Positions 1 to 58,672 of a DNA stretch of 64,000 bases are shown in pieces. Under the pieces are notes generated by a model that saw only the letters and a program-made list of their open reading frames with translations, was not told where the DNA came from and did no database searches. How positions within the stretch are numbered: position 1 is the stretch's first letter; every line of letters begins with the position of its first letter. Source of the stretch: Apium graveolens (taxonomy: Eukaryota; Streptophyta; Magnoliopsida; Apiales; Apiaceae); the NCBI RefSeq assembly GCF_009905375.1, contig NC_133650.1, positions 60,837,628 through 60,901,627 of the forward strand, given 5' to 3'. Made by a program: the position numbers and the translations under genes.

Positions 1-300
1 GCTCATGGATATGTTCAGGATGTATTGAGGACCCGAGTGGCTGTTGCCGAGGGCCGACTAGATGAGGCCAGGAGGGAGTTGGATGCAGAGAGGGCGGGTA
101 GGCGTACCCGAGCTTATGAGACTAGGGCTTCTATACCCCGATCCTTGAGGAGGGAGCTTACGGGGATAGAGCTCACAGCCCGAGCGAGGCTCAGATCACT
201 CCAGGGGGACAGGCATGGTAGGATCTCCAGGCGGCAGGCCGACTATATCTTCCGTCGTGCGATGGAAAGGGTTTGGGAGCTGACCCGCTCCGGTGTGTGA
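1..300 (+). CDS. Upstream arginine-rich ORF of Tekay-1 (5' end missing)
   Basis: The frame is open from base 1 to the TGA at 298-300, giving about 99 residues; its start lies outside the window. It is rich in Arg, Glu and Ala, with a helical heptad-like stretch (RLDEARRELDAERAG), and ends ..RRAMERVWELTRSGV. I do not recognise a domain. It precedes gag by about 410 bp, so it is a separate coding unit in the element's leader. A TTG at 25 is not a convincing start; the frame continues upstream of it. It could be a downstream exon of the small H3-like exon found in Tekay LTRs (see 9132-9227), but the joining region is not in the window. It could also be non-functional leader sequence. Confidence 0.45.
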   Translation, partial: AHGYVQDVLRTRVAVAEGRLDEARRELDAERAGRRTRAYETRASIPRSLRRELTGIELTARARLRSLQGDRHGRISRRQADYIFRRAMERVWELTRSGV

Positions 301-712
301 TTCAGGATTGACGATGGAATAGTCTAGTTGTCTAGTTAGCCGAGGCCTTAGTAAGAGCCAATTTTCCGGGATAGTTGACTTGTATATAGCATCCCTTTTT
401 CTGACTAGACAGATAGACTCTTGTGTATCACTTTTGGGACAGATGACTGTAGCACTGTTGTACTTTTGACCAGATCAAACTATGTATTCTCGCATTATGT
501 ATATATTTGTTTCCTTTCGGTTCAGTTCCATAGTGACGGGATCACTGTTTTTATCATTATTATTACTGCACTTCGTATTAGAACTTTCTTAAAATAATAG
601 AATTGCGATATACGTTCTCCCCATTATAAGAGCTGTGCAAGGCACAATGTTGTATATGATTGTGACCTAACGTTGAATTTTCCCAATGATTGTTTTTATT
701 ATTATCAGAATC
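301..712 (+). other. Leader between the upstream ORF and gag
   Basis: No gene is visible here. The stretch is T-rich and contains several stop codons in each frame. It ends TTATTATTATCAGAATC just before the gag ATG at 713. TTATCAG looks like a 3' splice site, but nothing confirms its use. Confidence 0.5.
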
Positions 713-3700
713 ATGCCGCCAAGAAAGATTGGAACTAGGGCGAACCCTGGATCTGAGGACCAGGGAAGCCATAATCAGGACAATAGAAACCAAGAACACA
801 GTGAAGAGGAAGATGAGGATTATGTGTAACAGGATGACTCCCTGTATGAAGAGGAAGAGGAAACATATGATGTTGAGGGATTTGAGATAGAGGCTGAAGA
901 AGGAGAAACCGAGGTTGAGCAACCAGTACCAAACCCAGGCGTGGATCCCATGAGCCAGTTCATGCAACTCCTAAGGCAGAATTTGGAACGTCAACCCAAC
1001 CCACCCCCTCAAGGAAGTAACAATGCTGTGGCAAACTCTTTCAGGGCTTTTAAGTCCCTTAAGCCCCCTGAGTTCCACGGATCAGCCGACCCAGTTGAGG
1101 CCAGGGCATGGTTAAAGGAAATGGAGAAATCTTTTGAGATTTTGAGTACCGAGGAGGCACAGAAGACTGTATTTGCTACCTACCTTCTGAAAGGAGAAGC
1201 TAACTACTGGTGGGAGGCCAAGAAAAACATGGAGACAGATGCTATTATAACCTGGGAGAGATTTAGTCAGTTGTTTCTGGGAAAGTATTTCCCGAGGTTT
1301 ATGGAAAACCAGATGGAGCTCAAGTTCTTGGAGCTAAAGCAGAATAACTTGTCTGTAGCAGAGTACCAAGCGAAATTTACTGAGTTATCAAGGTTTGTGC
1401 CGGAGTTTGTGAGCACCGAGGAAAAGAAAGCTAGGAGGTTTCAGCAGGGACTGAAACCATGGATTCAGAATAGGGTGGCAATCCTTGAGCTTACGGACTA
1501 TGCCACTCTGGTGCAAAAGGCAACGATTGTAGAAGCCGGAAGTGAACAGATGCAGAAGGAAAGAGAGAAGAAGGGAATAAAGAGGAAAAGTATGAGCATG
1601 GGTGGAGGTTCCGCAGGAAGGAGCTTCCCAACTAGATTTAATCGAGGAGCAGTGTCCCTGCCAGGAAGGAACACTGGGTTTAAGCGACCAATGAGTGTGA
1701 GTGTGAGCCAGGGCGGCCAGAAGTCAAGAATGTCCTATTCCAACCAGTCTCGACCCCCATTGCCAGCCTGTAACATATGTGGAAGGAATCACACTGGGGA
1801 GTGTAAAGGAAAGCCAGTAACCTGCTTTAAGTGTGGGCAAGTGGGCCACTATTCTCACAAATGCCCTTCGTCAGCCCCTGCCGTCATTCCAACCACCACT
1901 TGTCATCAGTGCGGACGCCCAGGTCATTGGAAGAGAGAATGCCCAATGAACAAACCAGCAGCTTCGGGAGCAAGCAGGGCTGCTTCTAATAAGCCACCTA
2001 CTGCGAGGACTTTCAACATAACAGTCCAGGATGCTATGAAAGATTCAGATGTGATAGCAGGTACCCTTTCTCTAAATTCAGTCAGTGCAAATGTTTTATT
2101 TGATTCGGGAGCAACTAAATCTTTTATATCAAGGGACTTTGCGCGTAAGTTAAGACTTAAGGCTAAACCCTTGATAGAACCCTTACAAGTAGAAATAGCC
2201 AATCATGAAATTATTCCTGTTAACCAGATTCACCCCGCCTGTGAGATAGGCATAGGGGAGCAATCTTTCAGTGTTGATCTGATTCCTTTTAAATTAGGGG
2301 AGTTTGATGTAATTTTGGGAATGGACTGGCTATCTAGCAACGATGCTCAGATAGACTGTAAAGGGAAGAAAGTTAAGTTAAATGTCCCAGGGAAGAAAGA
2401 AGTTATATTTAGAGGAAAGAGGCAGACGCAGAAATTTTTGACTATGGCCCAGGCCAAAAGGATGCTACGAAAAGGAAGTGAGGCTTACCTAGCCTATGTG
2501 GTGGACACGCAGAAGGAGGTGCCCAACTTACAAGATATTCCAGTAGTCAACGAATTTGAAGATGTATTCCCACAAGACCTTCCGGGATTACCACCCGATA
2601 GAGTGATTGAATTTGCTATTGAGTTGGCCCCAGGGACGGCGCCAGTTTCAAAAGCACCTTACCGGTTAGCCCCGTTAGAAATGAAGGAATTAGCTATCCA
2701 ATTGCAGGAACTCTTGGATAAGGGTATGATAAGACCCAGTGTGTCTCCGTGGGGAGCACCAGTTTTATTTGTTAAGAAGAAAGATGGGAGCATGAGGTTG
2801 TGCATCGACTATAGAGAGTTGAACAAGCTAACCATAAAGAACAGGTACCCATTACCTAGAATAGACGATCTGTTCGACCAGCTAAAGGATGCTGTTTATT
2901 TTTCCAAGATCGACCTGAGAACTGGATATCACCAACTAAAGATTAAACCCGAAGATATTTCCAAGACAGCGTTCCGTACCAGGTATGGGCATTATGAGTT
3001 CTTGGTAATGTCCTTTGGATTAACCAACGCCCCAGCGGCTTTCATGGATTTAATGAATAGAGTATTTAAGAAGTACTTGGACAAGTGTGTGATAGTTTTT
3101 ATCGATGATATTTTGATCTACTCAAGGACTGAGGCAGAACATGCAGAGCATTTGAGGATAGCTCTAGGAATACTCAGAGAGGAGCAGTTATATGCCAAAT
3201 TCTCGAAGTGTGAATTCTGGCGGAATGAAGTACAGTTTTTAGGACATGTGATCAATAAAGAAGGAGTATTGGTCGACCCCTCCAAGATAGAGGCGGTCTC
3301 AAATTGGGAAAGGTCAACCACACCCACAGAGGTAAGGAGTTTCATAGGATTGGCCGGCTACTATCGTAGATTCGTACAGGACTTTGCGAAGATCGCAGCC
3401 CCTTTGACACGACTTACTCGTAAGACAGAGAAGTTTGAATGGACGGAGGAATGCGAGAACAGTTTTCAGGAATTAAAGAAAAGGTTGATAACGGCTCCGG
3501 TATTGGCATTGCCGGACGGAAAAGGAGATTTTGTGATATATAGTGACGCGTCGCACAAAGGATTAGGATGTGTGCTTATGCAGCACGGTAAAGTTATTGC
3601 GTATGCGTCGAGACAACTGAAGGAATACGAGGTTAGATATCCTACTCATGACCTTGAGCTCGCGGCAATAGTATTTGCTTTAAAAATTTGGAGGCACTAC

Positions 3701-5422
3701 TTGTATGGAGAGAAGTGCGAGATTTTCACAGACCATAAGAGCCTCAAGTACATATTTACGCAGAAAGAGCTCAACATGCGCCAGAGGAGATGGTTAGAAC
3801 TAATCAAGGACTATGATTGTGAGATTCTCTATCATCCAGGGAAAGCCAGTGTGGTGGCTGATGCCCTTAGTAGAAAGGAAAGACTCAGAATGATAACGAC
3901 TTCGGAAGAGTTGATAAGGGATTTTGAGAAAATGGAAATAGAAGTAAAGGTAACCGGAACCGGAACTGAAAAGCTTTTTGAGATCTCAATGCAGCCAGAG
4001 TTATTGGAAAAGATCAGATTGTGCCAGGAGAAAATAATGAATGAAGGCAGAGAGTCAATGACTGGAGAGGAGATCCATACTGAGAAAGATGATAAAGGGA
4101 TAATGAGGTACTCCTACCGAATTTGGGTTCCGAATGTTCAAGAACTTAAAGATGAGATTTTGGATGAAAGCCATAATTCAAGGTATTCCATTCACCCAGG
4201 AAGTACCAAGATGTATAGGGATTTGAAGGAATATTACTGGTGGCCCAACATGAAGAGGGACGTAGCAGAATGGGTAAGCAAGTGTTTGACTTGCCAAAGA
4301 GTAAAGGCGGAGCACCAGAGACCCAGTGGACTTTTACGACCCCTGGAGATTCCCGAATGGAAATGGGAACAGATAGCGATGGATTTTGTTGTAGGCTTGC
4401 CAAGGACGAAAGCCAATCACGACGCCATTTGGGTAATTATAGACCGACTGACAAAGTCAGCTCATTTCATTCCTATCAATGAGAGATACACAGTCGATAG
4501 ACTGGTGGACATTTACCTTAAGGAAATAGTGACGCGACATGGAGTCCCAGCGTCCATTGTCTCAGACCGAGACCCCAGGTTCAACTCCAGATTTTGGAGG
4601 AGCTTTCAGGAATGTGCGGGGACCAAGTTAAATATGAGTACCGCGTACCATCCCCAAACGGATGGACAGAGTGAAAGGACCATCCAGACACTAGAGGATA
4701 TGTTGAGAGTCTGTGCAATAGACCTTAAAGGAAGTTGGGATGATCACTTGCCGTTGATCGAGTTTTCTTATAACAATAGCTTTCATGCTAGCATCGGAAT
4801 GCCGCCTTATGAGGCCCTGTACGGAAGAAGGTGTCGATCTCCCTTATACTGGGATGAAGTAGGGGAGCGGAAGATGCTCGGACCCGAAGTGGTCCAAAGG
4901 ACCAAAGATATAGTGGATCTTATCAGAGGGCGACTTGTAGCAGCCCAAGACAGACAAAAGAAATATGCAGACCTAGCCCGAAAGGACAAGGAATATGAAG
5001 TAGGGGACTTAGTACTGTTGAAAGTATCCCCTTGGAAGGGATTAATGAGGTTCGGAAAGAAAGGAAAACTAAGCCCAAGATACATTGGACCTTTTGAGAT
5101 ATTAAGACGGATTGGAAAGTTAGCTTACGAGCTAGCCCTACCCCCTAATTTGCAACAAGTTCATAATGTGTTCCATGTGTCAATGCTAAGGAGGTATCAT
5201 CGGGATGCCAGGCATATAGTGGAGTACGAGCAGGTGGATATGCAGCCAGATCTAACTTACGTGGAGAAGCCAGTAAGGATTATGGATAAGAAGGAGCAGG
5301 TGCTTCGGAACAAAGTGATCAAGCTAGTCAGAGTACTATGGCAGAATCATAATGTGGAAGAATCAACTTGGGAACTAGAGAGCACAATGCTAGAAAAGTA
5401 CCCCCATTTATTTTCTGTTTGA
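713..5422 (+). pseudogene. Tekay-1 gag-pol polyprotein, one in-frame stop
   Basis: The natural start appears to be MPPRK at 713, the usual type of chromovirus gag start. The frame meets a TAA at 827-829 in an acidic stretch, most simply a CAA to TAA change, then runs open to 5422. Residues counted from the Met at 941 (1493 aa): gag capsid region about 35-200; zinc knuckles at 277-289 (shortened), 295-308 and 321-334; protease [10 protein letters not shown] (DSG at 388-390); [20 protein letters not shown] and VFIDDIL (FIDD about 720-723); RNase H acidic residues D869, E906, D931 and D974; integrase H/C motif about 1077-1118 and D1148, D1209, E1245 (D-60-D-35-E); chromodomain-like tail about 1440-1490. 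No frameshift is seen. Pol could still be made from a downstream start or by readthrough. Confidence 0.93.
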
Positions 5423-5442: not shown

Positions 5443-5454
5443 AAGGAGGGGAGA
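5443..5454 (+). promoter_or_regulatory. Polypurine tract of Tekay-1
   Basis: AAGGAGGGGAGA lies one base before the LTR start TGTAATAACC at 5456. The same tract precedes the Tekay-2 LTR at 13359-13370. It is the expected plus-strand primer of reverse transcription. Confidence 0.85.
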
Positions 5455-7560
5455 CTGTAATAACCCCAAAATTTTCAACTTTTTGTAACCCTTGTGAATA
5501 GTGTTTTAGCTGAATGAAGAAACTTTTCATGCCACACTATGTAGGGGTTCTGTTATGGATATTCTGGGATATTATTAGTACTCTATGAAGTATATAAGTG
5601 TATGTAAAGATCGTCAGAATCCAATTCCGAACACTTTGGTTTTTCCCGGAAATCCACAAGATACGGAGAGAATTGAGTATAAGGTAACAGGATAAAAAGG
5701 ATTTAAATTAAAGGATTATAATAGAGGATCATAAAAAGGAATATAATGTATTGAGAAAGGTTAAGGGAACCTAAGTAATAAGATCCCGGGTATGATCCTT
5801 CAAACGATAAACGAGAATGAAAGTTAAGCAAACCGTATAACAGATCAGCGGTCATTAGGCAAATGATTAGGAAGTTAATCAAAGGGATTAGGGGGAATGA
5901 TGTCATCCAACCAATAGAAAGAGGACAAGGAAGGGAGGATGACATCATGAGGATGACATAAGCATGACATGGGAAGGAAGGAGGTGTGGTAGCTTTGTAA
6001 CCACACAATTTCAAGGGCAAGAAAGTAATTGACTAAATCAAATACAAAACAAGTCAACCAAGCCAAGTAAAAATCATTCTCATCAAAAATCAAAAGCAAC
6101 CAAGGCATGAGTTCTTCATTTGCTCTCGGCTTTTAGCATTTTTAAAGGCATAGAATTTCAAAACTCAAGATCCAAGCCTCCTAAATTGGTAAGATAATTC
6201 CCTAATCATCTTCATGCTTAGTTAGGACTATATCATGAGTTTAAGCCATTAATTCTTTCTCAATCTTCTTCATTTAATCAAAGAAGAAGACAATGAATAG
6301 TGTTTTCAAGTTTTTAACTTGAACTTTTTCTTGTTTTTCTTGAAGATCCAAGCATTCTTAAGACTTCTCAAAGCTTCTTAAGGCTTCCTAGCTCCACCCA
6401 CCACTTCAAGGAAGGTATACCATCTCCAAACCCTAGATTCCTATATATTATAAGATGATTTTGATTAGTGGGTTGATATTGTAGTTTGTTGTTATGATTT
6501 AGAGTTTGGGATTTGGAATGGTAGTGAAATGGAATGGTAATTGTTGTGGTTTTGATTTAAAGGAACTTAAGTATGATTAAAGTTAAGTTTAAGCATAAGT
6601 ATGAATGATTAAATTGAATTGGTTGGGGTTGTTATGATGTGATAAGGATGGATGTTTGTTGTGTGTTGGATTTGAGGTTGGTTTGTGGTTGGTTTTGTAT
6701 GGTTTAAAATTGGGAAATCGCGTAAACATAGCCGTCGTAACGTCCGATTTTCTTTGGACTGTTTTTGTGCATAGCATTAGGACCCGAGAACCCCCTGCTA
6801 GATTATGACCAGTGCCATGTTTAGATAGCTCATGTTACGAGCTTCGTTTTGATATGTAGTTCGTTCGATTCCGATGCACGGTTTAGGAGAAACGACCGTT
6901 TCAAGTAACGGCGTTTCGCGAACGAAACTTTTTCCCTCGCCTTACTTTGAAACATAGGTTAAAGACCAAAAAGGGTTAATTAATGTATGAAACATTTATG
7001 GTAAGTGTGTTAGGCAGTTGGTAAGACACTCGCGAAGGAATCGCTTTAAAACTCGTAAAGGTTAAATTATTAAAAATGGTGGAGCCGAGGGTACCCGAGT
7101 GACTTAAGCGAATCGGTGAGCGCAAAACAAGCGTTAGAGTCTAAGTTAGTTAAAGTATAGATTTACAAGTGATTTTGGTTTAATTCCAACTTACTTGTTG
7201 TTTATAGGTTACCAGACTCGTCCCGAGCCTTTCTCACCCCCAAGTCGCTCAGGCAAGTTTTCTACCCGTTATAACTGTTGTTGTGATGAATATATGTATT
7301 TGCATTATCTTGCGATAGATGCATGTTGGTTAATTAGCAAATGATGCAATATATTGAAGCATGCTGCTATGGTATATATATATATGCATGCCTGTTTTGC
7401 ATTCTTTCCATATATATATATCTGTTGGTTCAGTTTATAATACCTATGCTAGAGGATAGCGGTAACTTGCATATACCCTTAGTATAGGGACCCAAAGGTG
7501 AAAATATTTTCTAAAACCGGGAGTCGAGGATCCCGAGTAGATTTTGTATATATGGATATG

Positions 7561-7561
7561 A

Positions 7562-7593
<32 letters not shown>

Positions 7594-7598
7594 ATATG
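7561..7598. repeat. (AT)n microsatellite in the Tekay-1 LTR
   Basis: A near-perfect TA/AT run lies in the LTR. The equivalent place in the Tekay-2 LTR (about 15441-15467) has a shorter run. Confidence 0.85.
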
Positions 7599-7663
7599 GT
7601 TATAGTTTTCCAAACTATTAATCGAATAAGGTTTATTCGATAACTTTAACTTTATTTTATTAT

Positions 7664-7815
7664 TGAATGTTATTCTGAATATTCATTCGAGGGCTTATGA
7701 CTCTTTTATATTATTATTGGATATTACTTGGATATTCATTTGAGGATGTATGACTCCTTTATTTTATGAATATTATTTATAATATTCATTCGAGGTATTA
7801 TGACTCCGCTTATTA
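7664..7815 (+). repeat. Short tandem repeats in the LTR
   Basis: Three diverged copies of a unit ending ATATTCATTCGAGG..TATGACTC follow one another about 55-65 bp apart. Two related copies lie in the Tekay-2 LTR near 15530-15630. Confidence 0.7.
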
Positions 7816-9131
7816 CTGCAATATATTCTTTATTTTATTAAAGAATAAGGTGTCAATAATCAAACTTATTTTCGATTATTCCAATAAAGATAATACTTTC
7901 ATATAAGTATATCTTTGATTATTTAATACTCGTTTCAAGTATAAGTTTTAATACTTTTACTTCAATTATTTTTATAAAGATTATTCTTTATGGGAATATT
8001 ATTTAAATAATAATATTCAGTTATTTTCTAAATATACTGGGGACTGATTTACTTCATTAAATCAGTTTTACTCCAAACACTCTTTAAAGTGTTTTCGAGT
8101 CTTCAAATGATTTTTAAAAGTTAGAGCGGATCCCAAAACTTATTTTTATATTTAATATCTTCCTTTTTAAGGGGATTTAAATACTCGCTCAAAACCTGGG
8201 GAATCCGGCTCTGTGGTGTATTTTATATTCGCAACAAGGTTGCTGTCTTGGTAAAAGAGTTTTTGATTACTTACCCAATATTCGGGAAGTAAAATTATTG
8301 GAACAAGTTAATCCATTAATAGGCATCGCCTGGGAAATATCGGTGAGTTTTCCTCTCCAACTAGATACGACTTCTTGGTGAAGCCGTATCAACAAGTTTC
8401 TACTTGGGGAAAGGGGGAAACGAGCTTTACGTTTCAGAGTCATGGATTTCATCTGAACTAGGAGTGGCGTAAGTGGTCGAGTAGCGCCGGCCCAGCCTTA
8501 TCATATTGGCCCAAATGGCCTGGAAGTTCCGCTAAGGCGGTCCATTCCTTAGGAGTTCAGTGTTCGGTTGACAAGTAAATCCGACAGGTTCTCCTCTACA
8601 TGTAGAAAATGGTGGGGTTGTACTACTACGACTGATCATCGTAAGTGGTCTTCCTGGCGCGGTAAACTCTCGTAATGAGTTCATCATCCATTTGGATAAT
8701 TCTGCAACACTACCCGTAGCATTTCGATCGAAAGGCTACTAATGGGTGGTTGCCGAAGCATTGACAGGGTCAAACATTTTTATTGGTGTATCCATTGAAT
8801 GAAGTATCTCGTAACTTCATCTCTTTTCAAAATATTTCAAAGATCAAATATTTTCAAGTTTTATTTGTGGTCTCATCTATGGGATGACCTCGTGAATCTT
8901 ATAATACTTTGAACGGTGATAGTTCAAGTAGCTTTATAAATGATATAAGTGTGGGGAAGTATTGGTAACTTCATTCCTTGTTTTTACTTATATCTAGTAA
9001 GTAATTATCTTACGCACGATAAAGATTCTAGTAAGTATCCATTTAGATACTTGTATTATTGTTATCACTACATATTATCTTGCGAGCTGTAAGGCTCACT
9101 CTTGCTTTATTTCTTCATCACACAACAACAG

Positions 9132-9227
9132 TTAGGAGAGATGGCCAGACTCCAGCAGACCCAGCGCAAGCGCGTGGGAAGCGTCCCGCGTCTTCCCGAT
9201 GATGTTGTAGCTGCTATAGCTGCAGAG
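9132..9227 (+). CDS. Candidate small exon in the Tekay-1 LTR with a histone H3 tail-like N-terminus
   Basis: A pyrimidine-rich stretch ends ACAACAG at 9131. Nine nt later an ATG (9141) opens a 29-codon frame, MARLQQTQRKRVGSVPR.., up to GAG at 9225-9227, directly followed by GTAG, a good 5' splice-site match. Without splicing the frame stops five codons later. Against the histone H3 tail (MARTKQTARK..) positions A1, R2, Q5, T6, R8 and K9 agree, and G12 may too. The same layout recurs at 17146-17238 and 49275-49358. A role in chromatin mimicry is inference. No transcript evidence is available, and the match is short. Confidence 0.45.
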
Positions 9228-9533
9228 GTAGATCCATTGTAGTTCAGACCATCTACTTTTGGGAATCAAATTATGTATAATTATAACTTGTGGCAGATAA
9301 TGGCAATTAACTGTAAATTATCAAGTAATCATTTTGGGTTGTAATAATTTTAAATTGTGGATTCAAAGACTTGTACTTATTTCAATTTCATCTCTGAGAC
9401 TATAACGGGTTGTGGTGTGTGTTAGTGTGGGGTCACAGCATGAGGTTATTTATTATTAATTAAGTGAAGTGATATTGTGGAAAGAAAGACCGTGACAACC
9501 CGGATCCCCGACCCCGGATCTGGGGGTGTTACA

Positions 9534-12500: not shown

Positions 12501-13371
12501 AGATCGCTGATGAGCAAAAGTGTAACCAGTATAGTATTATGTACGGAAGATAGTAACGACTACGAACTGGAAAAGAATGGGTATTGAGAAGCAAAAGCTA
12601 TAATGCTAGAAGCTATGATGAGAGTCGGTGCAATAGACTTGAAAGAAATTTGGAGTGATCACTTAACGCTGATTAAGTTTTTTTAAGATAATCGATCATA
12701 TGTCAGTATCGAGGTATCGCCTTATGAGATCCTTGAGGGAAGATAATGTCGATCTCCCTTATGATATGATGATGTTGCAGAGTGCAAGATGCTTAGACCA
12801 GCAGTGGTCCAAAGGACCAAGGATATAATAGATTTAATCAGAGAATGGCTGGTAGTAGCCCAAGATGGGCACACGAAGTATGTTGATTTGACACGAAAGG
12901 ACAAGGAATAGGAAGTAAGGGACCTAGTGTTGTTATAGGTATTCCTTTGGAAATGATGGATGTGGATCGTAAAGAAAGGAAAGCTAAGCTCACGAATTGT
13001 TGGACCCTTGGAGGTATTAAGACGTATTGGAAAGTTAGCTTATGAGCTATCCCTACCCCCGAACATGTAGCAAGTTCATAACGTGTTCCACGCATCAATG
13101 TTAAGGAAGTGTAATTCGGATGCCAGACAAATAGGGGCATATGAGCGCATAGACATGTAACCAGACGTAACTTATATGGAGCAACCAGGAAGGGTTATAG
13201 ATTGAAAAGGGACAAGTGCTTGGGAGAAGGGCTATCAAACTAGTAAGAGTTTTATGGTAGAACCACAATGTGAGAAGATTGAGTTGAGAGTTAGAAAGTG
13301 CAATGCTAAGAAAGTATCCCTATTCATTTTTTTCCTGATTCCGGGACGGAGTCCTTTTAAGGAGGGGAGAC
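9534..13371 (+). pseudogene. Decayed gag-pol of Tekay-2
   Basis: Nucleotide similarity to Tekay-1 gag-pol is clear at both ends. 9538-9720 follows the gag region around 1183-1400 (for example TTTTCGGGAAAGTAATTCCCA against the capsid segment). 12600-13340 follows the integrase and C-terminus (GTGCAATAGACTTGAAAG.. against 4700). The offset to Tekay-1 changes from about 8.32 kb to 7.92 kb between these points, so about 0.4 kb net is missing. Stops and indels are frequent in every frame. The RT region around 10400-10900 is only faintly recognisable. Non-functional. Confidence 0.85.
13359..13370 (+). promoter_or_regulatory. Polypurine tract of Tekay-2
   Basis: AAGGAGGGGAGA, one base before the LTR start TGTAATAACC, is identical to the Tekay-1 tract. 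Confidence 0.8.
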
Positions 13372-16300
13372 TGTAATAACCTCAATTTTTGGAATTTTTG
13401 AAACCCTTATGAATAGTGTTTTGCTAATTATGCTGAATAAGAAAACTTTTCATGCCACACTATGTAGGGGTTCTTTTATTGATCTTCTAGGATATTATTA
13501 GTACTTTATGTGGTATATAAGTGTATGTAAAGATCGTCAGAATCCAAATCCGAACACTTTGATTTTTCCCGAAAATCCACCAGATACCGAAAGAATTGAG
13601 TATAAGGTAACAGGATAAAAAGGATTTAAATTCAAGGATTGTAAGAGACGATCAAAAAAGGAATATAATGTATTGAGAAAGGTTAAGGGAACCCAAGTAA
13701 TAAGATCCCGGGTATGATCCCTCAAACGATAAATGAAAACGAAAGTTAAGCGAACCGTATAACAGATCAGCGGTCATTAGCCAAGTAATTAGAAGCTAAT
13801 CAAAGAGATTAGTGGGGATGATGTCATCAAACCAATGAGAAGAGGACAAAGGTGGGAGGGTGACATCACATGGTGACATAAGCATGACCAAAGCAAGTGT
13901 GTTGTTGGTTAATTTAGAACCACACAAAAGTTACCATGGTAAAAGGTAAGAAAACAAAACAAAACAAATCAAAATCAACCAACCAACAAATCATTTCACC
14001 AAAAAACACAAGTTGACTTCATTTCTTCAAAGGAAGCTCTCGGCTTTCTCTTTATTTCAAGAAGGAAAAATTCAAAATCCTAGTTCCAAGCTTTGTTAAT
14101 TAGCAAGGTAATTATCTAAGACTCCTTATGCTTAGATATAGCTATCCTATAAGTTTGAGCTTCTAATTCATTCACAATCTCTTCCTAAAAATCATGGAAG
14201 AAGATGGTGAATAGTGTTTTTCAAGAACTAAAATTTTTGTTCTTGAGTTTTTGTTTAGATTAAGCTTGGATAAGGACTTTTAAGGGTGATTCCAAGCTAA
14301 TTACTTGATTCTCCACTCTCCGAGGAAGGTATAACCCCTCCAAACCCTAACTTTACTTGAGTATTAGGTTTAGTTATGTTGTTATAGTTCATGAGAGGCT
14401 TGTTTATTGTGAATGTAGAGGATAGTTGGTGTTGTAATGTTTTTGAGTTGTAATTCTTGGAGTATTGATTAATGAACTTAAGTATAGTTTAAATTCATGT
14501 TTGAGAATAGTATAAATTGATAATGTTGAGTTGTTAGGGCTGTTATGGTGAAGTATGGATGGAGTTTTGATTGGGTTGTGATTGTGGGTTGATTGTGGGT
14601 TGGTTTGGAGTAGAATAAAATTGGTAATCGCGTAAACATAGCCGTTGTAATGTCCGATTTACTTTAGACTGTTTTTGCTCTTAACATTAGGACCCGTGAA
14701 CTCACTGCTAGGTTTTGACCATTGCCAATATTAGATAGTTCATGTTACGAGCTTCGTTTTGATATGTGGTTCGTTTGATTCCGATGTACGGTTTAGGAGA
14801 AACGACCGTTTTAAGTAACGGCGTTTCGCGAACGAATCATTACCCCTCGCCTTACTTTGAAACATAGGTTAAAGACCTAAAAGAACTAATTGGAGTATGA
14901 AACATTTATGTAAAGTGTGTTAGGCAGTTGGTAAGACACTGTGAAAGAATCGTCTTAAAACTCGTAATGGTTAAATTATTAAAAATGGTGGAGCCGAGGG
15001 TACTCGAGCGACTTAAGAGAATCAGTAAGCGCAAAGCGAGCGTTAGAGTCTAAATTGGTTAAAGTATAGGTTTATAAGTGACTTTGGTTTAATTCCAACT
15101 TATATGTTGTTTATAGGTTACCAGACTCGTCCCAAGCCATTTGTAACCCCTAGTCGCTCAGGCAAGTTTTCTATCCGTTATACTGTTGTTGTGATGTATA
15201 CATTTGTATATGCATTATCTTGTGATAGATGCATGATGGTTAATTAGCAAATTCTAGCGATATATTGTAGCATGTGATATGGTATATATGCATGCCTGTT
15301 TCGTATTCTTGATACATATATCTGTTGATTCAGTTGATAATACCTATGCTAGAGATAAGCGGTAATTTGCATATACCCTTAGTATAGAGGACCCAAAGGT
15401 TAACTTTTTTCTAAAACCGGGAGTCAATGCTCCCAAATATAATATATATATTTATATATATATATATGAATAGTTTTTTTTAAACTATTATTCAAATAAG
15501 GTTTATTCGATAATTTTATTTTATTAATGAATATTATTTTGAATATTCATTCGAGGGCTTATGACTCCGTTTATTTTATTAATGAATATTATTATTTGAA
15601 TATTCATTCGAGGACTTATGACTCTGATTATTTACTAATTATTATTCTTTATTTTATTAAAGAATAATGTGTCGATAATCAAACTTACTTTTGATTATTC
15701 AAATAAAGATAGTATTTTCATATAAGTATATCTTTGGTTATTTAATATTCATTTCAAGTATAAGTTTTACAACTTCTACTTCAATTATTTTTATAAAGAT
15801 TATTCTTTATGGGAATATTATTTAAATAATAATATTCAGATATTTTCTAATATATTGGGACTGATTTATCTTATTAAATCAGCATCACTCCAAACATTCC
15901 TAAAAATGTTTTGCGAGTCTTCAAAATGATTTTAAAAGTTAGAGCGGATCCCAAAACTTATTTTATATTTAAGATCTTCCTTTCAAAGGGGATTTAAATA
16001 TCCTCTCAAAACCTGGGGGATCCGGATCTGTGGGGTGTTTTATATTCGCAACAAGGTTGCTATTTTGATAAAAGAGTTTTTGATTACTTACCCAACACTC
16101 GGGAAGTAAAATTCTTGGAACAAGTTAATCCATTAACAGGCATCGCCTGGGAAATATCGGTGAGTTCTCCTTTTCAACTAGATACGACTTCTTGGTGGAG
16201 CCGTATCAACAAGTTTCTACTTGGGGAAAGGGGGGACGTGCTTTACGTTCCAGAGTCATGGATTTCATCTGAACTAGGAGTGGCGTAACTGGTCGAGTGG

Positions 16301-17552
16301 CGCCGGCCCAGCCTAACTATATTGGCCCAAATGGCCTGGAAGTTCTGCTAAGACGGTACATTCCTTAGGAGTCTAGTGTTCTGTTGACAAGTAAATCTGA
16401 CAGGTTCTCCTCTACATGTAGAAAATGGTGGGGTTGTACTACTACGACTGATCATCGTAAGTGGTCTTCCTGGCGCGACAAAACTCCCGTAATGAGTTCA
16501 TCATCCAATTGGATATTTCTGCAACACTACCCAGAGCAGCTCGATAGAAAGGCTACGGTTGGGCGATTGTTGAGTGTTGGCAGGGTCAAGCTTTCAAAAT
16601 GATGTTTGCATCAAATGAAGTATCTCGTAACTTCATTTTATTTTGATGATATTTTAAAGATTGATTCTATACAAGTTTTGTCTTGTAGCTTAATCTATGG
16701 GATGAACTAATTATAACTTGAACGGTGGTAGTTCAAGTAGTATTCGAAAAAGATATAAGTATATTGGAGTATCTTGTAACTTCATCTTTTAAACTTATAT
16801 CTAGTAAATGATTATCTTATGCATGACAAAGATTTTCAGAAAAATGTTGAGACAAGGTTAGATATATGAGATCACCTTGCAACGATATTTTTATACAGTT
16901 ACAAACTGGAACTCTGTGTATATTATGCATGGAAGAGGACTTCCAAGATTTTGAAAAGTATATATACATATATACTGAATATTTTGTGACTTGGTCGCGA
17001 TAAGATATCAAACTTGGTTCATTTTTTCTTGACCAAGACTTTCATGAGTACTATGAGAATGCTCATATATTGTAAATCATTATACATATTATTTTGGTGG
17101 GCTTGTTACTCACCCTTGCTTTCTTCTTTCATCACACAACATCAGATAGACAAGATGAACAGGACCAAGCTTCCAATTCGCAAGCGGTTAGAAAATGTTC
17201 CGCAGTTTTCTGGAAGCGTTGATGCCGCCGTAGCTGAGGTAGGAGCTACCAATAGGCTAGGTTTTCAACTATTGATGAATCAGACTTATGTATAATATGA
17301 ATTGTAATAATGGCAAAGAAATGTAAATTTATTCAGAACCTTCTTGAGGTGTAATGGCTTATTATGTGGAATAAAATGACTTGTGTTATTTTTTGGGTAT
17401 TCATCTCTGAGACTATAACTTGCGGTGTGTGTGTGTGTATATTGTGGGGTCACAGTACACAGTAATTGGTTGATTGTTAAGATTAAGTGTTGTTAAGGGA
17501 TATGGAACTCGTGACAACCCGAATCCCCGACCCCGGATTTGGGGGTGTTACA
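13372..17552 (+). repeat. 3' LTR of Tekay-2 (about 4.18 kb)
   Basis: TGTAATAACC..GGTGTTACA, collinear with 5456-9533 with many substitutions and small indels. It carries the small exon-like ORF at 17146-17238. Other reading frames inside it are not conserved between the two LTRs. Confidence 0.9.
17146..17238 (+). CDS. Candidate small exon in the Tekay-2 LTR, H3 tail-like
   Basis: CACAACATCAG ends at 17145. Nine nt later an ATG (17155) opens MNRTKLPIRKRLENVPQF.. for 28 codons to GAG|GTAG (donor at 17239). Compared with the histone H3 tail, R2, T3, K4, R8 and K9 agree. The C-terminal half (..VDAAVAE) matches the Tekay-1 copy (..VVAAIAAE). Conservation of the 9-nt spacing, frame and donor between diverged LTRs argues for past selection, though common descent alone could keep part of it. 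Confidence 0.42.
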
Positions 17553-36886: not shown

Positions 36887-38191
36887 TGAAAGGCATATGT
36901 CATAGCATATTTGTTTATTCGAGGATTTAACTCAACTCAAATAAGAATGTAACAAGTAAATAGTGGATCTACCGTCAAAGAGATCTCGCAAAGTAACATA
37001 TGTCAAAGGATTCAAAAACAAGGTTCATCTACAGACTTGAAGAATTACTTCACTGGAAGAAGTTCAAGAAATTGATCAAGCCTCAGTGATATAAATCAAG
37101 ATTGTGGATTTAATCAAGTGACAGAGATCTTGTCAGGGTATCAGATAATTATAGGGATTTGATCTGAAGAAAATTAAGTTATCAAAGTCAAGACATGAAG
37201 AAACGTCACGAAAGTTAGTCACTCATGAACTAGACAGTACATCGAGTGTCAACATTGAAGTGGTGGAATTGATTCATAATTGACAGTGATTTTCAGAAGA
37301 TTTTCAGAAGAATGGTTGTTGTTGAAGAGTAGTATTAATTCTCTATTAATTAATTAAGTCATATAGTTTAATTAAGAAAATAAATTATATCTGCAAATAT
37401 TAATTTATTTATTAATTGAATTAATTGATTAATTAATTCTGAATTAATATGAGGAATTTTCAGAATTGATTTTGAATTTATATTCAATATTAATTCAGCA
37501 TGAAAATCAATTGAACTGGTATGACAATCAGATTGTCATACCGAAAGTCATACCAGCTCAAATAGATTGTCATACCGAAAGATCTACTAGTTCAACAGAT
37601 TGTCATGCTAGTTCAATCAATTGTCTTGCCGATAGTCTTTCCAGTTCAATCAATTGTCTTGCCAGTTCATTCAATTGTCTTGCCGATTGTCTTGCCAGTT
37701 CAAGTGGATTCTGTTGATTGAAATATAAAAGAATCGAAGCAGCAGACATTTCAACAGACACACAACAGAAGTCAACCATTTTCAAGAACAAAAGAAAATC
37801 AGAGCTGCAAATATTCCATCTTTCAAATGCTGAATTCAGATCATCAATTTCTAGTTATTTAAGTTAAATCCAAACCACAAGAAATCATTCTCTTTTTCTT
37901 GTGTAAGTATCTAGCGGATTAAAATCCCTAGAACTTAATCTCAAATTGCTTTTAGCATTTGATCTTTTTATTGCAAAAATAGAAAAAGTTCATGTCGAAT
38001 TTATTCTAGATTTGTGATAATTAATTTGAGATTAATCCTTGGTAATCGATACCGTTGTTGTAATACTTTTCAAATTTAATAATATTTTTATTTAACTTGA
38101 ATTTTGTTTCAATTTTTATTCCACACTAAATTCGATTAAACGGTATAGTTTGTATTCACCCCCCCTTCCACAAACATATTGTGACCTAACA
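36887..38191 (+). repeat. 5' LTR of copia-3 (1.3 kb)
   Basis: TGAAAGGC..CCTAACA, followed by a primer site. It aligns along its length with 57356-58672, with a few percent differences by eye, so insertion is fairly recent. Confidence 0.92.
37520..37705 (+). repeat. TTGTCTTGCC/TTGTCATACC repeats in the copia-3 LTR
   Basis: Diverged units of about 30-37 bp, such as CAATTGTCTTGCCGATAGTC and GATTGTCATACCGAAAG, follow one another. The frame across them is a by-product. The 3' LTR copy is at about 57990-58190. Confidence 0.8.
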
Positions 38192-48400: not shown

Positions 48401-49527
48401 AGTATTGATATCTCATCCTGGTACTTGAACCCCTATAGAACCTTACCTTGAACCCTGAAAGCCAGATATTTATCAAAGTGATTCCTCATTAATTGATACC
48501 CCTCTTTCCTATCTTAATGCTTGACAATTCTGATATAACCTGAGTTAAAGATCATTTCTTCATACCTTAACACCCTTAGTATTCATGAAGTTTATCTTCT
48601 TGATGATCCAGCACTTGTGCCTTGACGATAAACCATTGCTTTAAGCCCAGTTTGGCATTACCCCTACATAATATCCAATAGCCTCACTAAATTTTCTTGT
48701 CCATGTTTTATATATGAAAACCTTTCCGTTACCCTAATGGAGTAAAGTTTAGTGGATCATGGCCTTGAGATTTAGTACCATATTTCCCGTGTTTCGAGTT
48801 GATCTATAATCCCTTGATAAAAATGTTTACTGTTAAAAGAGATTTTGGTCATAAATCGACATCAGTTTTTGAAATAAATAATATATGGATTTTCAGTCCC
48901 AAAGGGGGATAAATGTTTTCTTTGAATAGTGGATCTGGACTGAGACGCGAGTCCTTTCCACACTTATATTAGGCTTAAAAGTTGCCTAGGAATCCCATCA
49001 ATGTTTTAGAACCCAGCGAGGTTCGGGATTACTTCGCGGCTGATCACCGGCTGTAATCCGTAGCGTCATAAAATGATTTTGATTAAGATATGGTTTTGAA
49101 ATTGTTTTGATACAAGCAAAATGATGCCATCACCCAAAGTTTTATCTCTCGTTATCATTGGTTATGTCTTCCCATTGTCATTCTTTAATGTATATCTTGA
49201 TTTGTGTTTTGTATCGTACTGTTTAGCACTTGTTGAGCATTTGGCTCACTCCTTGCTTTACCCTGATATTACAGCTAGCAGCTATGGTTAGATTCAAGCA
49301 GACCGCCCGTAAGACCTGTGATGCTGATGCTTATGTGCGAGCTCAGTTAGAATAAGAGATAGTAGTTTTGTGTGAGGACTCGCTATTTAAAATCAGCTGT
49401 AATAGATGGTAGTGTTGGGCTGTTCCAAACCCTAAACTGTAAGATCTTGGATTTGGTTATGTTTACTTCTTTTTAAAATGTTGTAATAGTTATATTTAAT
49501 TTTGCTGGTTAAGTTGGGGGTGTGACA
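45457..49527 (+). mobile_element. Solo LTR, Tekay-like (4.07 kb), in the Tat-A integrase
   Basis: Begins TGTTACAACCGGC and ends GTTGGGGGTGTGACA, with 5-bp TSDs CATAA at 45452-45456 and 49528-49532. Its length and ends match the Tekay LTR class, and it carries the same small exon near its 3' end. There is no internal region, so it is the product of LTR-LTR recombination. No other gene is seen inside. Confidence 0.92.
49275..49358 (+). pseudogene. H3 tail-like small exon in the solo LTR
   Basis: CTGATATTACAG ends at 49274. Nine nt later the ATG (49284) opens MVRFKQTARKTCDADAYVRAQLE, then TAA (49353-49355) and GAG|AT where the other copies have GAG|GT. After the initiator Met, VRFKQTARKT differs from the histone H3 tail ARTKQTARKS at three of ten positions, with K4 and K9 kept. 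KQTARK is identical, and the bases AAGCAGACCGCCCGTAAG are ordinary H3-gene codons. The stop and lost donor suggest decay after insertion. Confidence 0.45.
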
Positions 49528-49532
49528 CATAA

Positions 49533-52500
49533 TATGGGAAGTATCTCATCCACCCAATTATTTCTTGACTTCTCAATCCTCTTTCTTAGTCCATCCAGGA
49601 TTATTCGATTTGCTACCTCAGCTTGCCCATTAGCTTGCGGGTGAGCCACAGAGGTGAACCGTAACTCAATCTCATTTTCTTCACAGTATTTCTTGAATTC
49701 CTCGTTGTTGAATTGTGTTCCATTATCGGTGACTAGGATACGGGGAATTCCATATCGGCACATAATGTTTTCTCACAGGAATTGTGCAACCTGCTTAGTT
49801 GTGATCTTGGCCAAGGGTTTGGCTTCAATCCACTTGGTGAAATAATCAATGGCTACAATAAGAAACTTCCTTTGTGTCGTGGCCATAGGGAAAGGCCCTA
49901 GAATATCCATCCCCCACATAGCAAAGGGAATAGGCGAGTTGATAGAGGTCAGCATCTCGGGGGGTTATCTAACAACTGGTGCATGCTTCTGACAGCGATC
50001 ACACTTCTTCACATATTCTTTGGCATCAACCATCATTTCTGGCCAATAGAAGCCTAAACGGGTTATCTTATGAGCCAAGGCCCTGCCCCCCAAGTGTTTC
50101 CCACAAATACCTTCATGCACTTCCTCAAGAGCCAAGCGTGCCTCATCGGGCCTGAGACACCTCAAGTAAGGAACCACGAAAGATCTTTTGTACAAATCCC
50201 ATCTATCAAAGAGTACCTTATTGCCTGAACAGCTAACTTCCGTGCTTCGGTTGCATCGCTTACAAACCAATCGGTTTGAATGTGATCCTTAATAGGATCA
50301 ATCCATGATATCCCCAGGCCTATTGGAGCCACAAGCTTAACATCTATGCTTCTTGTCTTCAAAACACGGAAATACATACTTCCTGAACTTTCTTCTATCT
50401 CAGATGAAGCAAACTTTGATAACGCATATGCCTTAGCATTTTCTTCCCTTGGAATGTGCTCAACATGGCATTCATTAAATTGGGTCATCACAGCCCTTAC
50501 TAGGCGGACATACTTAGCCATCGTATCATCCCTTGCCTCAAATTCTCCCTTTCCTGGGATATGATCAGCTTCGAGTCCCCACGGACCTTTAAGTTTTTGA
50601 CTCTAAGTGTTCCAGCTAGGCCAAGGCCAGCTATCAGGGCTTCATATTCTGCCTCATTGTTTGTGGTTGGGAAGTCTAGCTTCATAGCATACTCAATTAA
50701 GAACCCATCAGAGCTTTACAAAACCAATCCTGCTCCACTGGAGTTTGTTTTTTATGCTCCATCAAAATAGAGAACCCAATATTCTTTCTCCTTATCATCC
50801 TTCTCTTTGCCCCCATTATCGACTCCCTTGTCTTATGGTGTGGTATCTCCCTGCACCCCGATTTCTTGGTTGGGTATGGTACACTCCACCACGAAGTCAG
50901 CTAGCGCCTGGGCTTTTATTGCCGTTCGCGGCTTATACTTGAGATCGAACTCTCCCAGCTCTATTGCCCACTTAATCAATCTCCCACTTGCCTTGGGACT
51001 GTGAATGATATTTCTCAGTGGCTGATTTGTTAGCACCTCAATCTGATGAGCCTGAAAGTAAGGATGCAGCTTTCTCGAAGCCATTACCAATGCTAGAGCA
51101 AATTTCTCAGTAGTTGAATAATTCAATTCAGCACCATGCAGAATTTTGCTGACATAGTATACGGGTTTCTGGACTTTCAGTTCCTCCTTAACCAACACTG
51201 CGCTCAAGGCACTCTCTGAAACAGCCAAGTACAAGAATAAAACTTCACTCAAAACTGGCTTGGCCAACAAAGGGGCATGCGCCATATATTGCTTCAGTTC
51301 TTCGAAAGCCTTCTGGTTTTCTTCGCTCCATACAAAGTCCTTAATATTTTTTAATGACTTAAAGAATGATAGGCACTTGTCTCCTGACTTGGAGATGAAT
51401 CGTCCCAGCGCAACAACTCTTCTTGTGAGCTTCTGAACATCCTTAACAGTTTTTGGTGGTTCCATGTCCAGGATTACCTTTATTTTATCGGGGTTAGCCT
51501 CAATTCCTCTCTTTGAGACCATCAATCCCAAGAATTTCCCAGATCCTACTCCAAAAGCACACTTCGTAGGATTCAACATCATCTTGTGGTACCTCAGGAC
51601 CTCAAAAGCTTCCCTCAAATGGGTTATATGATCAGTCTTTACTAGACTCTTGACTAACATGTCATCAACATAGACTTCCATAGTCTTACCAATAAGATCC
51701 TTAAAAATTTTATTTACCAACCTTTGATAGGTGGCTCCTGCATTCTTAAGACCAAACGCCATAACAAGATAACAATAAACACCAAAGTCAGTGATAAATG
51801 ATACCTTTAAAATGTCATTCTTATGCATCTTAATCTGATTATATCCGCTAAATCCATCCATGAAACTCAGCATCTCATGCCCAGCAGTGACATCAATCAA
51901 AGTATCAATCCTTGGCAATGGAAAACAGTCTTTAGGGCATGCATCATTCAGGTCAGTGAAGTCTATATACATCCTCCACTTCCCATTAGCCTTCTTCACC
52001 ATTACAGGGTTTGCTAACCATTCTGAAAATTGAATCTCCTCAATGAAACCAGCCTCTAAGAGCTTTTCTACTTCCTGTTTTATAGCCTCTTGTCTTTCGG
52101 GGGAAAAATTTCTTTTCTTTTATTTCACTGTCTTCCTGCTTGGATCCACGTTTAACTTATGAGTAATCAGCTCCGGGTCTATGCCTGGCATATCAGCAGC
52201 TGACCATGCAAACACATCACTATTTTCTTGCAAAAATTTCACCAACTTCCCTCTAAGGGGCTCCTCTAATGTGGCTCCAATGAAAGTCATCCTCTCAGGA
52301 TTCTCGGGGTCTAAAGGAATCGAAACCAAGTCTTCTGCTAGCTTTCCTCTCTTCTCATCACTTTCTCGGACATCCATATCTTCAATAGGAAGAACCTGCC
52401 CCCCGACTCCATCTTCCCTCAAAGAGGCCACATAACAGCTTCTTGCCATTTTTTGATCTCCTCTTTCTTCTCCAATCTCATCTCGAGTCGGAAATTTCAT

Positions 52501-57355: not shown

Positions 57356-58672
57356 TGAAAGGCATATGTCATAGCCTATTTGTTTATTCAAGGATTTAAC
57401 TCAACTCAAATAAGAATGTAACAAGTAAATAGTAGATCTACCGTCAAAGAGATCTCGCAAAGTAACATCTGTCAAAGGATTCAGAAACAAGGTTCATCTA
57501 CAGACTTAAAGAATTACTTCACTGGAAGAAGTTCAAGAAATTGATCAAGCCTCAGTGATATAAATCAAGATTGTGGATTTAATCAAGTGACAGAGATCTT
57601 GTCAGGGTATCAGATAATTACAGGGATTTAATCTGAAGAAAATCAAGTTATCAAAGTCAAGACATGAAGAAATGTCACGAAAGTTAGTCAATCATGAACC
57701 AGACAGTACATCGAGTGTCAATATTGAAGTGGTGGAATTGATTCATAATTGACAGTGATTTTCCGAAGATTTTCAGAAGAATGGTTGTTGTTGAAGAGTA
57801 GTATTAATTCTCTATTAATTAATTAAGTCATATAGTTTAATTAAGAAAATAAATTATATCTGCAAAGATTAATTTATTTATTAATTGAATTAATTGATTA
57901 ATTAATTCTGAATTAATATTAGGAATTTTTAGAATTGATTTTGAATTTATATTCAATATTAATTCAGCATGACAAACAATTGAACTAGTATGACAATCAG
58001 ATTGTCATACCGAAAGTCATACCAGCTCAAATAGATTGTCATACCGAAAGTTCTACTAGTTCAACAGATTGTCATGCTAGTTCAATCAATTGTCTTGCCG
58101 ATAGTCTTGCCAGTTCAATCAATTGTCTTGCCGATAGTCTTGCCAGTTCATTCAATTTTCTTGCTGATTGTCTTGCCAGTTCAAGTGGATTATGTTGATT
58201 GAAATATAAAAGAATCGAAGCAGCAGACATTTTAACAGACACACAACGAAGTCAACCATTTTCAAGAACAAAAGAAAAGCAGAGCTGTAAATATTCTATC
58301 TTTCAACTGCTTAATTCAGATCATCAATTTCTAGTTATTTAAGTTAAATCCAAACCACTAGAAATCATTCTCTTGTTCTTGTGTAACTATATAGCGGATC
58401 AAAATCCCTATAACTTAATCTTAAATTGCTTTTAGCATTTGATCTTTTTATTGCAAAAATAGAAAAAGTTCATGTCAAATTTATTCTAGATTTGTAATAA
58501 TTAATTTGAGATTAATCCCTTGTAATCGATACCGTTGTTGTAACACCTTTCAAGTTTAATAATATTTTTAATTAACTTGAATTTTGTTTCCATTTTTATT
58601 CCGCACTAAATTTTATTAAACGATATAGTTTGTATTCAACCCCCCCTTCTACAAACATATTGTGACCTAACA
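57356..58672 (+). repeat. 3' LTR of copia-3 (1.3 kb)
   Basis: TGAAAGGCATATG..CCTAACA, then the TSD GTAGA. It is 12 bp longer than the 5' LTR by coordinates, with differences concentrated in the TTGTCTTGCC repeats (57990-58190). Confidence 0.92.

What the first reader, a model, noticed from the sequence alone, without database searches (positions are those of the whole stretch)
9132..9227. Histone H3 tail-like reading frame in Tekay LTRs
Seen: in three Tekay-type LTRs a small frame begins exactly 9 nt after a 3' splice-site-like CAG (9131, 17145, 49274). The starts are MARLQQTQRK, MNRTKLPIRK and MVRFKQTARK. Combined they give RxKQTxRK, the start of histone H3 (MARTKQTARK), with the positions of K4 and K9 kept in two copies and K9 in all three. 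Two end at GAG|GTAG donors in the same phase. Known: chromovirus integrases carry chromodomains, a fold that in other proteins reads methylated H3K9. Inferred: the element may encode an H3-tail mimic that engages or decoys its own chromodomain or host H3 readers and writers. I do not know of a description of this.
Basis: partly seen in the sequence, partly recalled or inferred. Interest (0 to 1): 0.87.

Follow-up and report, generated by a model that had tools for sequence, protein, structure and literature searches.

The report
Retrotransposon protein with histone H3 tail
Abundant jumping genes in celery carry, inside their end repeats, a small exon that appears to give one of their accessory proteins a near-copy of the histone H3 tail, so the element may be impersonating the chromatin it must deal with; the sequence evidence is strong and the function is untested.

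Summary
By similarity to H3 the three frames (ATG 9141, 17155, 49284) rank 2nd, joint 3rd and 1st of 1404 ATG-started 10-mers in the window. They are not free-standing ORFs: each is, by sequence, the first coding exon, in the LTR, of the pre-gag accessory frame ("5'aORF") of Tekay elements, with a phase-0 AG|GTA donor. Beyond the primer-binding site a phase-0 acceptor opens the rest, in the six families where both exons were read. Other celery families read MVRTKQTARKS and onward, H3 residues 2-10 to 2-13: 276 genome matches to an H3-shaped pattern against 0 for its reversed control; 6 of the 100 listed are real H3 genes. Annotated Heracleum and celery proteins join at this junction. Most likely the protein displays an H3-like tail to host H3-tail-binding proteins, as decoy or tether. 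Binding its own chromodomain is unlikely, that type lacking most of the methyl-lysine cage. My searches found no description in print. No RNA or binding data could be examined; the most H3-like families were found by pattern.

The parts
5456..9533 (+). 3' LTR of element 1 (family F1)
   Evidence: Polypurine tract at 5443-5455, TG...CA ends; 301-nt stretch identical in the 5' LTR just left of the window
9095..9131 (+). 3' splice-site-like stretch: branch-like CTCAC, pyrimidine-rich run, CAG
   Evidence: CTCAC or CTCAT 26-33 nt before the acceptor position in window copies 1-3 and in one copy each of A, B', C and F3 (the script's distances are one too large)
9132..9227 (+). Exon 1 (9 nt + ATG + 28 further codons, MARLQQTQRKRVGSVPRLPDDVVAAIAAE), phase-0 donor GAG|GTAGAT at 9228
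   Evidence: exon found in 29 of the 30 F1 loci fetched by exon 2 similarity, donor GT in 28
13372..17552 (+). 3' LTR of element 2 (family F2)
   Evidence: partial Tekay-like pol upstream at 12552-13329
17146..17238 (+). Exon 1, family F2 (MNRTKLPIRKRLENVPQFSGSVDAAVAE), phase-0 donor GAG|GTAGGA
49275..49346 (+). Exon 1, family F3 (MVRFKQTARKTCDADAYVRAQ); donor mutated in this copy (CAG|TTAGAA)
   Evidence: LTR ends at 49527
1..300 (+). 3' part of exon 2 of element 1: C-terminal 99 residues of the accessory protein, stop at 298-300; starts left of the window at acceptor TGTAG|GCGCCT
   Evidence: homologues P0001 and P0002 at 58% and 57%
709..5422 (+). gag-pol of element 1 (gag ATG 713, preceded by an acceptor-like ...TATTATCAG ending at 708; one stop early in gag); Tekay-type chromodomain at the C-terminus

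Best explanation
Tekay chromoviruses of celery encode, most likely from a spliced subgenomic mRNA, an accessory protein whose first exon lies in the LTR and whose N-terminus copies the histone H3 tail (in the best family H3 residues 2-13, with A1 changed to V), fused to a body, predicted helical in one family, encoded between the primer-binding site and gag. Homologous annotated proteins in Heracleum have the same two-part make-up. SHOWN: the sequence, the recurring splice anatomy, the consistent phase, that exon 2 lacks a start near its beginning in most families, and public gene models that use the junction. INFERRED: that the mRNA and protein are made, and that the tail docks host proteins that normally grip the H3 N-terminus (K4 and K9 writers, erasers, readers), most likely titrating or misdirecting silencing factors, with tethering of element complexes to chromatin factors as a close variant. 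The tail was probably captured from, or converged on, the first coding exon of a host H3.3 gene.
For: Window ranks 1st, 2nd and joint 3rd of 1404. Pattern M-x-(R/S)-T-K-Q-T-x-(R/S)-K: 276 in the genome, 0 for the reversed control. The six MARTKQTARK places among the 100 listed were fetched and all read as H3 genes; of ten other places that I chose to span codon types, nine are LTR exons and one (L084) is not. Family A copies picked by LTR flank and not by the exon, 38 aligned of 39: K9 38, T3 38, S10 38, K4 36, T6 36. Both splice sites phase 0 in F1, F2, F3, A, B', C. First Met of exon 2 at 9, 76, 29, 25, 38, 2. Heracleum P0004 (13 member sequences) and P0007, found with exon 2 alone, and P0012, P0013, P0017, P0018, P0019, found with a profile that contains exon 1, join at the predicted residue. 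PDB best hits for the B' exon are H3 peptides, best E 0.0011. Between single copies of A, B, B', C codons 2-10 differ by 2-5 synonymous changes with no residue change.
Against: No RNA reads or binding data; the gene models may be ab initio. A, B, B', C were found with an H3-shaped pattern, so their identity to H3 and the codon comparison are partly ascertained; cases not chosen by the tail are F1-F3, the family A flank sample, P0004 and P0007. F1 and F2 keep only part of the motif. Many copies are damaged: of the nine pattern-found LTR exons the acceptor is CAG in four, TAG in two, AAG in one and lost in two (including the B' copy), and one donor is lost; the B' exon 2 stops after 39 codons. 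In F3 exon 2 is open 23 codons upstream with a Met, so an unspliced start is possible there, as metagenome frames P0020 and P0021 read it. P0010, P0015 and P0011 join otherwise. That the Heracleum exon lies in an LTR was not seen. The sunflower Tekay aORF paper mentions neither histones nor splicing.
Confidence: 0.6

Rival explanations
1. Tether, not decoy: the H3-like tail recruits host H3-binding factors to the element's nuclear complex (integration targeting, nuclear retention) instead of relieving silencing.
For: Tekay chromodomains look unable to read methyl-lysine, so a second chromatin contact would be useful; the predicted body of P0004 is helical and might assemble (low-confidence model).
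Against: No interaction or localisation data.
Confidence: 0.22
2. Relic without H3 function: an ancestral element captured a host H3.3 first exon, and it now serves only as a translation start and basic nuclear-localisation patch.
For: Host H3.3 exon 1 in two celery genes has the same layout: AG|ATG, 24 codons, phase-0 donor. F1 and F2 have drifted yet keep the basic RK. The phase is kept in the six families read.
Against: In the copies of A, B, B', C and in Heracleum P0004 residues 2-10 are unchanged while the adjacent linker is changed, with the ascertainment caveat for A-C. Nucleotide identity to host H3 exons, 29-36 of 42, does not by itself separate capture from convergence.
Confidence: 0.15
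3. Leader or upstream ORF: the exon is a regulatory uORF in the gag leader, not joined to the accessory frame.
For: A second acceptor-like site lies directly before the gag ATG (window 708); exon 1 joined there would read out of the gag frame (my reading). F3 has a Met in the open frame upstream of its exon 2.
Against: In-phase joining to the accessory frame in six families and in public gene models.
Confidence: 0.06
4. The tail binds the element's own integrase chromodomain.
For: Both are encoded by the same element.
Against: Tekay-type chromodomain, a type reported to lack most cage residues.
Confidence: 0.04
5. Chance resemblance.
For: Ten residues are short.
Against: 276 against 0; ranks 1st, 2nd and joint 3rd of 1404; a second genus.
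Confidence: 0.01

Closest known systems
Tekay 5' additional ORFs (sunflower Tekay 13-2 and grass elements such as RIRE3, Retrosat-2 and maize Tekay; PMC11728184, passages read; Steinbauerova 2011 known to me from citations and recall only)
   Same: Sense frame in the 5' part of Tekay elements, before gag-pol, high copy number, partly helical and partly disordered, function unknown
   Different: Here the frame begins in an LTR exon with an H3-like tail; 'histone' and 'splic' occur 0 times in PMC11728184. Homology to those proteins could not be tested
Influenza NS1 histone mimic (cited in PMC7958646, passages read; Marazzi 2012 not read)
   Same: A foreign genome encodes a short H3-tail-like sequence at a protein terminus
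   Different: NS1 carries it at the C-terminus in a virus of animals; here it is N-terminal, up to 12 contiguous residues, at H3's own terminus, in a plant retrotransposon
Histone H3.3 first coding exon of the host
   Same: AG|ATG start, 24 versus 21-23 codons (F3-like families), phase-0 donor, residues 2-13 in the best copy
   Different: 9-nt spacer before the ATG, V for A at residue 1, diverges after G13, no histone fold found behind it
Retroviral and plant env-like subgenomic splicing (PMC7264820, passages read)
   Same: Accessory protein expressed from a spliced RNA
   Different: Accessory gene lies before gag and its coding begins inside the LTR

Membership tests
Tekay chromovirus | Chromodomain motif EEXTWEXE (from PMC3350952) | tested here: met
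   EESTWELE in element 1 and in one copy each of F3 and B' (L133, L134); the damaged A copy (L135) reads KEATWELE, a miss at the first position; F2 and C not examined
Tekay chromovirus | Chromodomain motif (K/R)-X-(L/T)-R-X-(K/R) | tested here: inconclusive
   KSLRNK in L133 and L134; QVLRNK in element 1, first position differs
Tekay chromovirus | gag, protease, RT, RNase H, integrase in Ty3 order | tested here: met
   Pfam scan of window 941-5419
Tekay chromovirus | Position in a reverse-transcriptase tree | not tested
Tekay 5'aORF proteins | Sense frame between 5' LTR/primer-binding site and gag | tested here: met
Tekay 5'aORF proteins | Conserved across many copies | tested here: met
   150 scored matches of 7605 first-look candidates; frame open to the normal stop in 25 of the 30 best-scoring loci
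Tekay 5'aORF proteins | Sequence homology to the sunflower or grass proteins | not testable with these tools
   Their sequences are not held; the hits that carry a source name are all Heracleum or Apium (the others have no name)
Histone H3 | N-terminal tail sequence | tested here: met
   H3 residues 2-13 in B' (L077), 2-11 in A (L079), 2-10 in C (L083) and in P0004
Histone H3 | Histone fold | tested here: not met
   No histone model in Pfam for P0004, P0013 or exon 2 of L083; no PDB fold match at E 0.001 for a low-confidence model, pTM 0.46
Histone mimics | Binds an H3-tail reader or writer | not testable with these tools
   Needs a binding assay

The most novel reading that the evidence does not exclude
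A plant LTR retrotransposon lineage has evolved (probably by capturing a host H3.3 exon into its LTR) a dedicated histone-H3 decoy: an accessory protein, made by splicing, that presents an H3 N-terminus carrying K4 and K9 to host silencing or reading machinery and so counters or exploits the H3K9 pathway that silences it.
Probability: 0.45. Interest if true: 0.94.

Novelty: new variant of a known kind. Interest (0 to 1): 0.86.

Why it matters
Tekay 5' accessory proteins have been known for more than a decade without a function. An H3-tail N-terminus gives them a specific, cheap, testable one, and it would be the first retrotransposon-encoded H3 mimic that I could find (paper searches). It may also explain why the aORF has been hard to interpret: its likely start is in another exon, inside the LTR. 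If the tail titrates H3K9 machinery, plants and their commonest transposons are in an arms race over the histone tail itself.

Tried and rejected
Chance resemblance: rejected. Own-chromodomain binding: disfavoured. Homology of the two kinds of exon 2 (F1/F2 versus F3/A/B'/C): not detected, hhalign probability 0.3% with the F1-type profile, although F1 and F2 tails align at 32%. Fold search of the P0004 model: no match at E 0.001. Viral contigs: 71 stretches matched exon-2 patterns, none confirmed as a relative; three places matched the H3 pattern, none an H3 protein. Within-family selection: copies are mostly decaying and the losses at R2 and A7 look like CpG decay, so no dN/dS claim is made from them. 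Nucleotide identity to host H3 did not separate capture from convergence. A search for celery families nearest to P0001 never got an answer. Structure prediction of the F1-type body was not run. In one search the F1 exon-2 count used too loose a pattern and gave 0; it was redone with a longer pattern. One search contained a wrongly placed stretch of L071; it was redone.

Full report
What was checked. Scored against MARTKQTARK they are 1st (49284), 2nd (9141) and joint 3rd (17155, tied with a frame at 2444) of 1404 stop-free ATG 10-mers on both strands of the window, and the top three of the 21 that have CAG exactly 9 nt upstream, where the fourth scores 7 against 24, 33 and 37; simulations give 0.1 per window at the lowest of the three scores.

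The frames are exons. Element 1 has gag-pol at 713-5422 with one early stop, a polypurine tract, a 3' LTR at 5456-9533, and a 5' LTR just left of the window that is identical over the 301 nt compared. Downstream of the 5' LTR and of the primer-binding site TGGTATCAGAGC (that this fits the initiator tRNA-Met is recalled) an acceptor ...TTTAATGTGTAG opens a frame that runs to the TGA at window 298-300 and encodes a conserved protein end (P0001 and P0002, 58% and 57%). Thirty family F1 loci, the best-scoring of 150 listed, were fetched by that protein end. In 30 of 30 the acceptor AG is present and in 25 the frame is open from it to the normal stop; in 29 of 30 the LTR exon was found upstream, all 29 with ATG and no stop, 28 with the donor GT in place. 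The donor (GAG|GTAGAT) and the acceptor are both phase 0. Element 1 itself has a stop in exon 2.

The same anatomy, other families. Family F2 (window copy 2): donor phase 0, acceptor ...CTCGTATAG phase 0; 9 of 30 loci reach exon 2, eight keep the AG, six are open for 282 codons. These 30 were picked with the exon in the query, so exon conservation in F2 is not evidence by itself. Family F3 (window copy 3): donor CAG|GTAGAA in 3 of 3 fetched copies, lost in the window copy; exon 2 acceptor ...GGTTGTCAG phase 0, read in L071. Families A (L079), B' (L077) and C (L083): the same phase, with exon 2 homologous to that of F3. Damage is common: among the nine pattern-found LTR exons the acceptor is CAG in four, TAG in two, AAG in one and lost in two (L077, L080); the donor GT is kept in eight (lost in L081); L080 has a stop in exon 1; the exon 2 acceptor is changed in L078 and L081; the B' exon 2 stops after 39 codons. 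The first Met of exon 2 is at 9, 76, 29, 25, 38 and 2 in F1, F2, F3, A, C, B'; in F1, F2, A and C a stop lies at most one codon upstream of the acceptor, so there exon 1 is the natural source of a start codon; in F3 the frame is open for 23 codons upstream and holds a Met, so an unspliced start is possible there. A branch-like CTCAC or CTCAT lies 26-33 nt before the acceptor in the seven copies looked at (distances corrected by one).

Closeness to H3. Searching the whole genome (3.33 Gb, 4849 contigs) for codons of M-x-(R/S)-T-K-Q-T-x-(R/S)-K gave 113 + 163 matches and none for the reversed control. Of the 100 places listed, all six that read MARTKQTARK were fetched; all read as H3, two of them through introns that were checked further. 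Ten others, chosen by me to span codon types and LTR pairs, were fetched: nine are LTR exons, one (L084) is not. The exons read, for example, MVRTKQTARKSTGGDFEAYARAQ (B'), MVRTKQTARKSTARQGEDHLRAQ (A) and MVRTKQTARKSIAGAAENHLRAQ (C). A PDB search with the B' exon returned histone H3 as its best hits (best E 0.0011). Between single copies of A, B, B' and C the codons for residues 1-9 differ by 2-5 synonymous changes while the residues do not (the single 'nonsynonymous' step scored in some pairs is the AGA/CGN arginine path), and the linker changes more freely. Because A, B, B' and C were found with an H3-shaped pattern, I lean on cases not chosen by the tail: F1, F2, F3; 39 family A copies picked by LTR flank (38 alignable, L117 dropped; the query copy not counted), where K9, T3 and S10 are kept in 38, K4 and T6 in 36, R8 in 34, Q5 in 31, R2 in 30 and A7 in 25; and P0004 and P0007 below.

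Independent support for the junction. A protein search with exon 2 of family C alone returned 9 proteins. Two of them, annotated Heracleum sosnowskyi proteins P0004 (13 member sequences) and P0007, begin MVRTKQTARKSSNG and continue ...IAQ|QRAHSSSS, the predicted junction. A profile search whose alignment contains the exon 1 of P0004 and P0007 returned 19, adding Heracleum P0012 and four celery models (P0013, P0017, P0018, P0019) that contain MV(R/I)FKQT(A/S)RKTCDA(D/N)AYVRAQ|Q(R/S)AHSS at the same junction, run into from other upstream exons. Against this: P0010 and P0015 reach exon 2 by other first exons, P0011 joins a shortened tail to a later point, P0020 and P0021 begin in what I call the intron, and the other unnamed hits lack exon 1. 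Whether any model rests on RNA is not known to me, and that the Heracleum exon lies in an LTR was not seen.

Which organism. Contig C3 of the window's genome has exactly the length (298219968) of the contig of P0015, an Apium graveolens protein, so the window is most likely celery.

Tekay membership. Element 1 ends with a chromodomain (Pfam Chromo, E 2.3e-4, below its curated cut-off) containing EESTWELE, the motif that PMC3350952 gives for Tekay (passages read); single copies of F3 and B' have it too, and the A copy has KEATWELE. PMC6317226 (passages read) states that type II chromodomains lack the first and usually the last of three methyl-lysine cage residues.

How it probably works. Shown: an LTR exon with H3-like coding, splice signals, phase and public gene models. 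Inferred: spliced mRNA, translation, removal of the first Met (usual before Val or Ala, recalled; not expected before Asn in F2), and an H3-like free N-terminus with K4 and K9 in register on a helical body (AlphaFold2 of P0004 with 13 sequences: nearly all of residues 1-35 below pLDDT 50, helices 40-69, 78-99, 106-128, 139-154; mean pLDDT 67, pTM 0.46). Such a protein should be gripped by host proteins that read or write the H3 N-terminus. Decoy for the silencing machinery is my first choice because such elements are targets of H3K9 methylation in plants (general knowledge) and because A, B, C and P0004 keep the QTARKS core; tethering is close behind. F1 and F2 keep only part of the motif and may have changed partner.

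Origin. Two celery H3 genes (L131, L132; H3.3-type by their T31, Y41 and H87/L90 residues, a recalled rule) have a first coding exon that starts at AG|ATG, has 24 codons and ends in a phase-0 donor, much the layout of the LTR exon (9 nt + 21-23 codons in the F3-like families, phase 0). Capture of that exon is attractive, but nucleotide identity (29-36 of 42) does not prove it.

Known or not. 5' accessory ORFs of Tekay elements are known: PMC11728184 reports them in 500 of 523 sunflower group-2 elements without similarity to known domains, and holds no occurrence of 'histone' or 'splic' (passages). PMC7264820 (passages) and PMC6317226 (passages) treat such ORFs generally; PMC13317346, a 2026 review of gene capture by plant transposons, has no occurrence of histone, Tekay, chromovirus or mimic. 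Searches of the paper library (listings only unless said) showed no description of an H3-like tail in a retrotransposon; most subscription papers are not in that library. Steinbauerova 2011 is known to me only by citation and recall. Viral histone mimics are known (influenza NS1, passage in PMC7958646).

Limits. One genome and one further genus of one plant family; no transcripts; no assays; copies mostly decayed; the most H3-like families ascertained by pattern. The sequence finding is strong, the function is open.

Noticed in passing
window 5456-9533 against 13372-17552: The two LTRs are mostly 84-95% identical in 100-column steps, but only 54-71% over 5948-6722 and 61-75% over 9030-9488, which includes exon 1 (with some steps of 73-80% elsewhere): a mosaic, by exchange or by fast evolution of those segments.
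   Followed up: partly
window 49284-49527 and 49530-52242: The third LTR stands inside a minus-strand Ty3 element of another kind (pol pieces at 52242-50899 and 50129-49530).
   Followed up: partly
window 708-713: A good acceptor-like TTTTTATTATTATCAG lies 4 nt before the gag ATG, so gag too may be translated from a spliced RNA; an F3 copy shows the same (ATTTCAG|GATCATGCC in L070).
   Followed up: no
L002/L009 against window 9000-9300: The 301-nt LTR stretch of element 1 is identical in its two LTRs, which suggests a recent insertion, although its accessory frame and its gag each carry a stop.
   Followed up: no
P0013, P0017, P0018, P0019 (Apium graveolens gene models): Annotated celery genes in which unrelated upstream exons run into the LTR exon; in three of the four the residues before its Met (LAA, LAA, LTT) are those of the 9-nt spacer, P0013 has PAA. 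Either host genes that acquired an internal H3-like segment, or annotation artefacts.
   Followed up: partly
L084 (G000:C3:176106029): A non-LTR frame starting MTRTKQTKRK, about 179 residues from that Met: a possible host protein with an H3-like start.
   Followed up: no
window 37561-37703 and 58030-58205: Two arrays of imperfect short repeats (TCAATTGTCTTGCC-like units), 20.4 kb apart, with longer direct repeats beside them.
   Followed up: no
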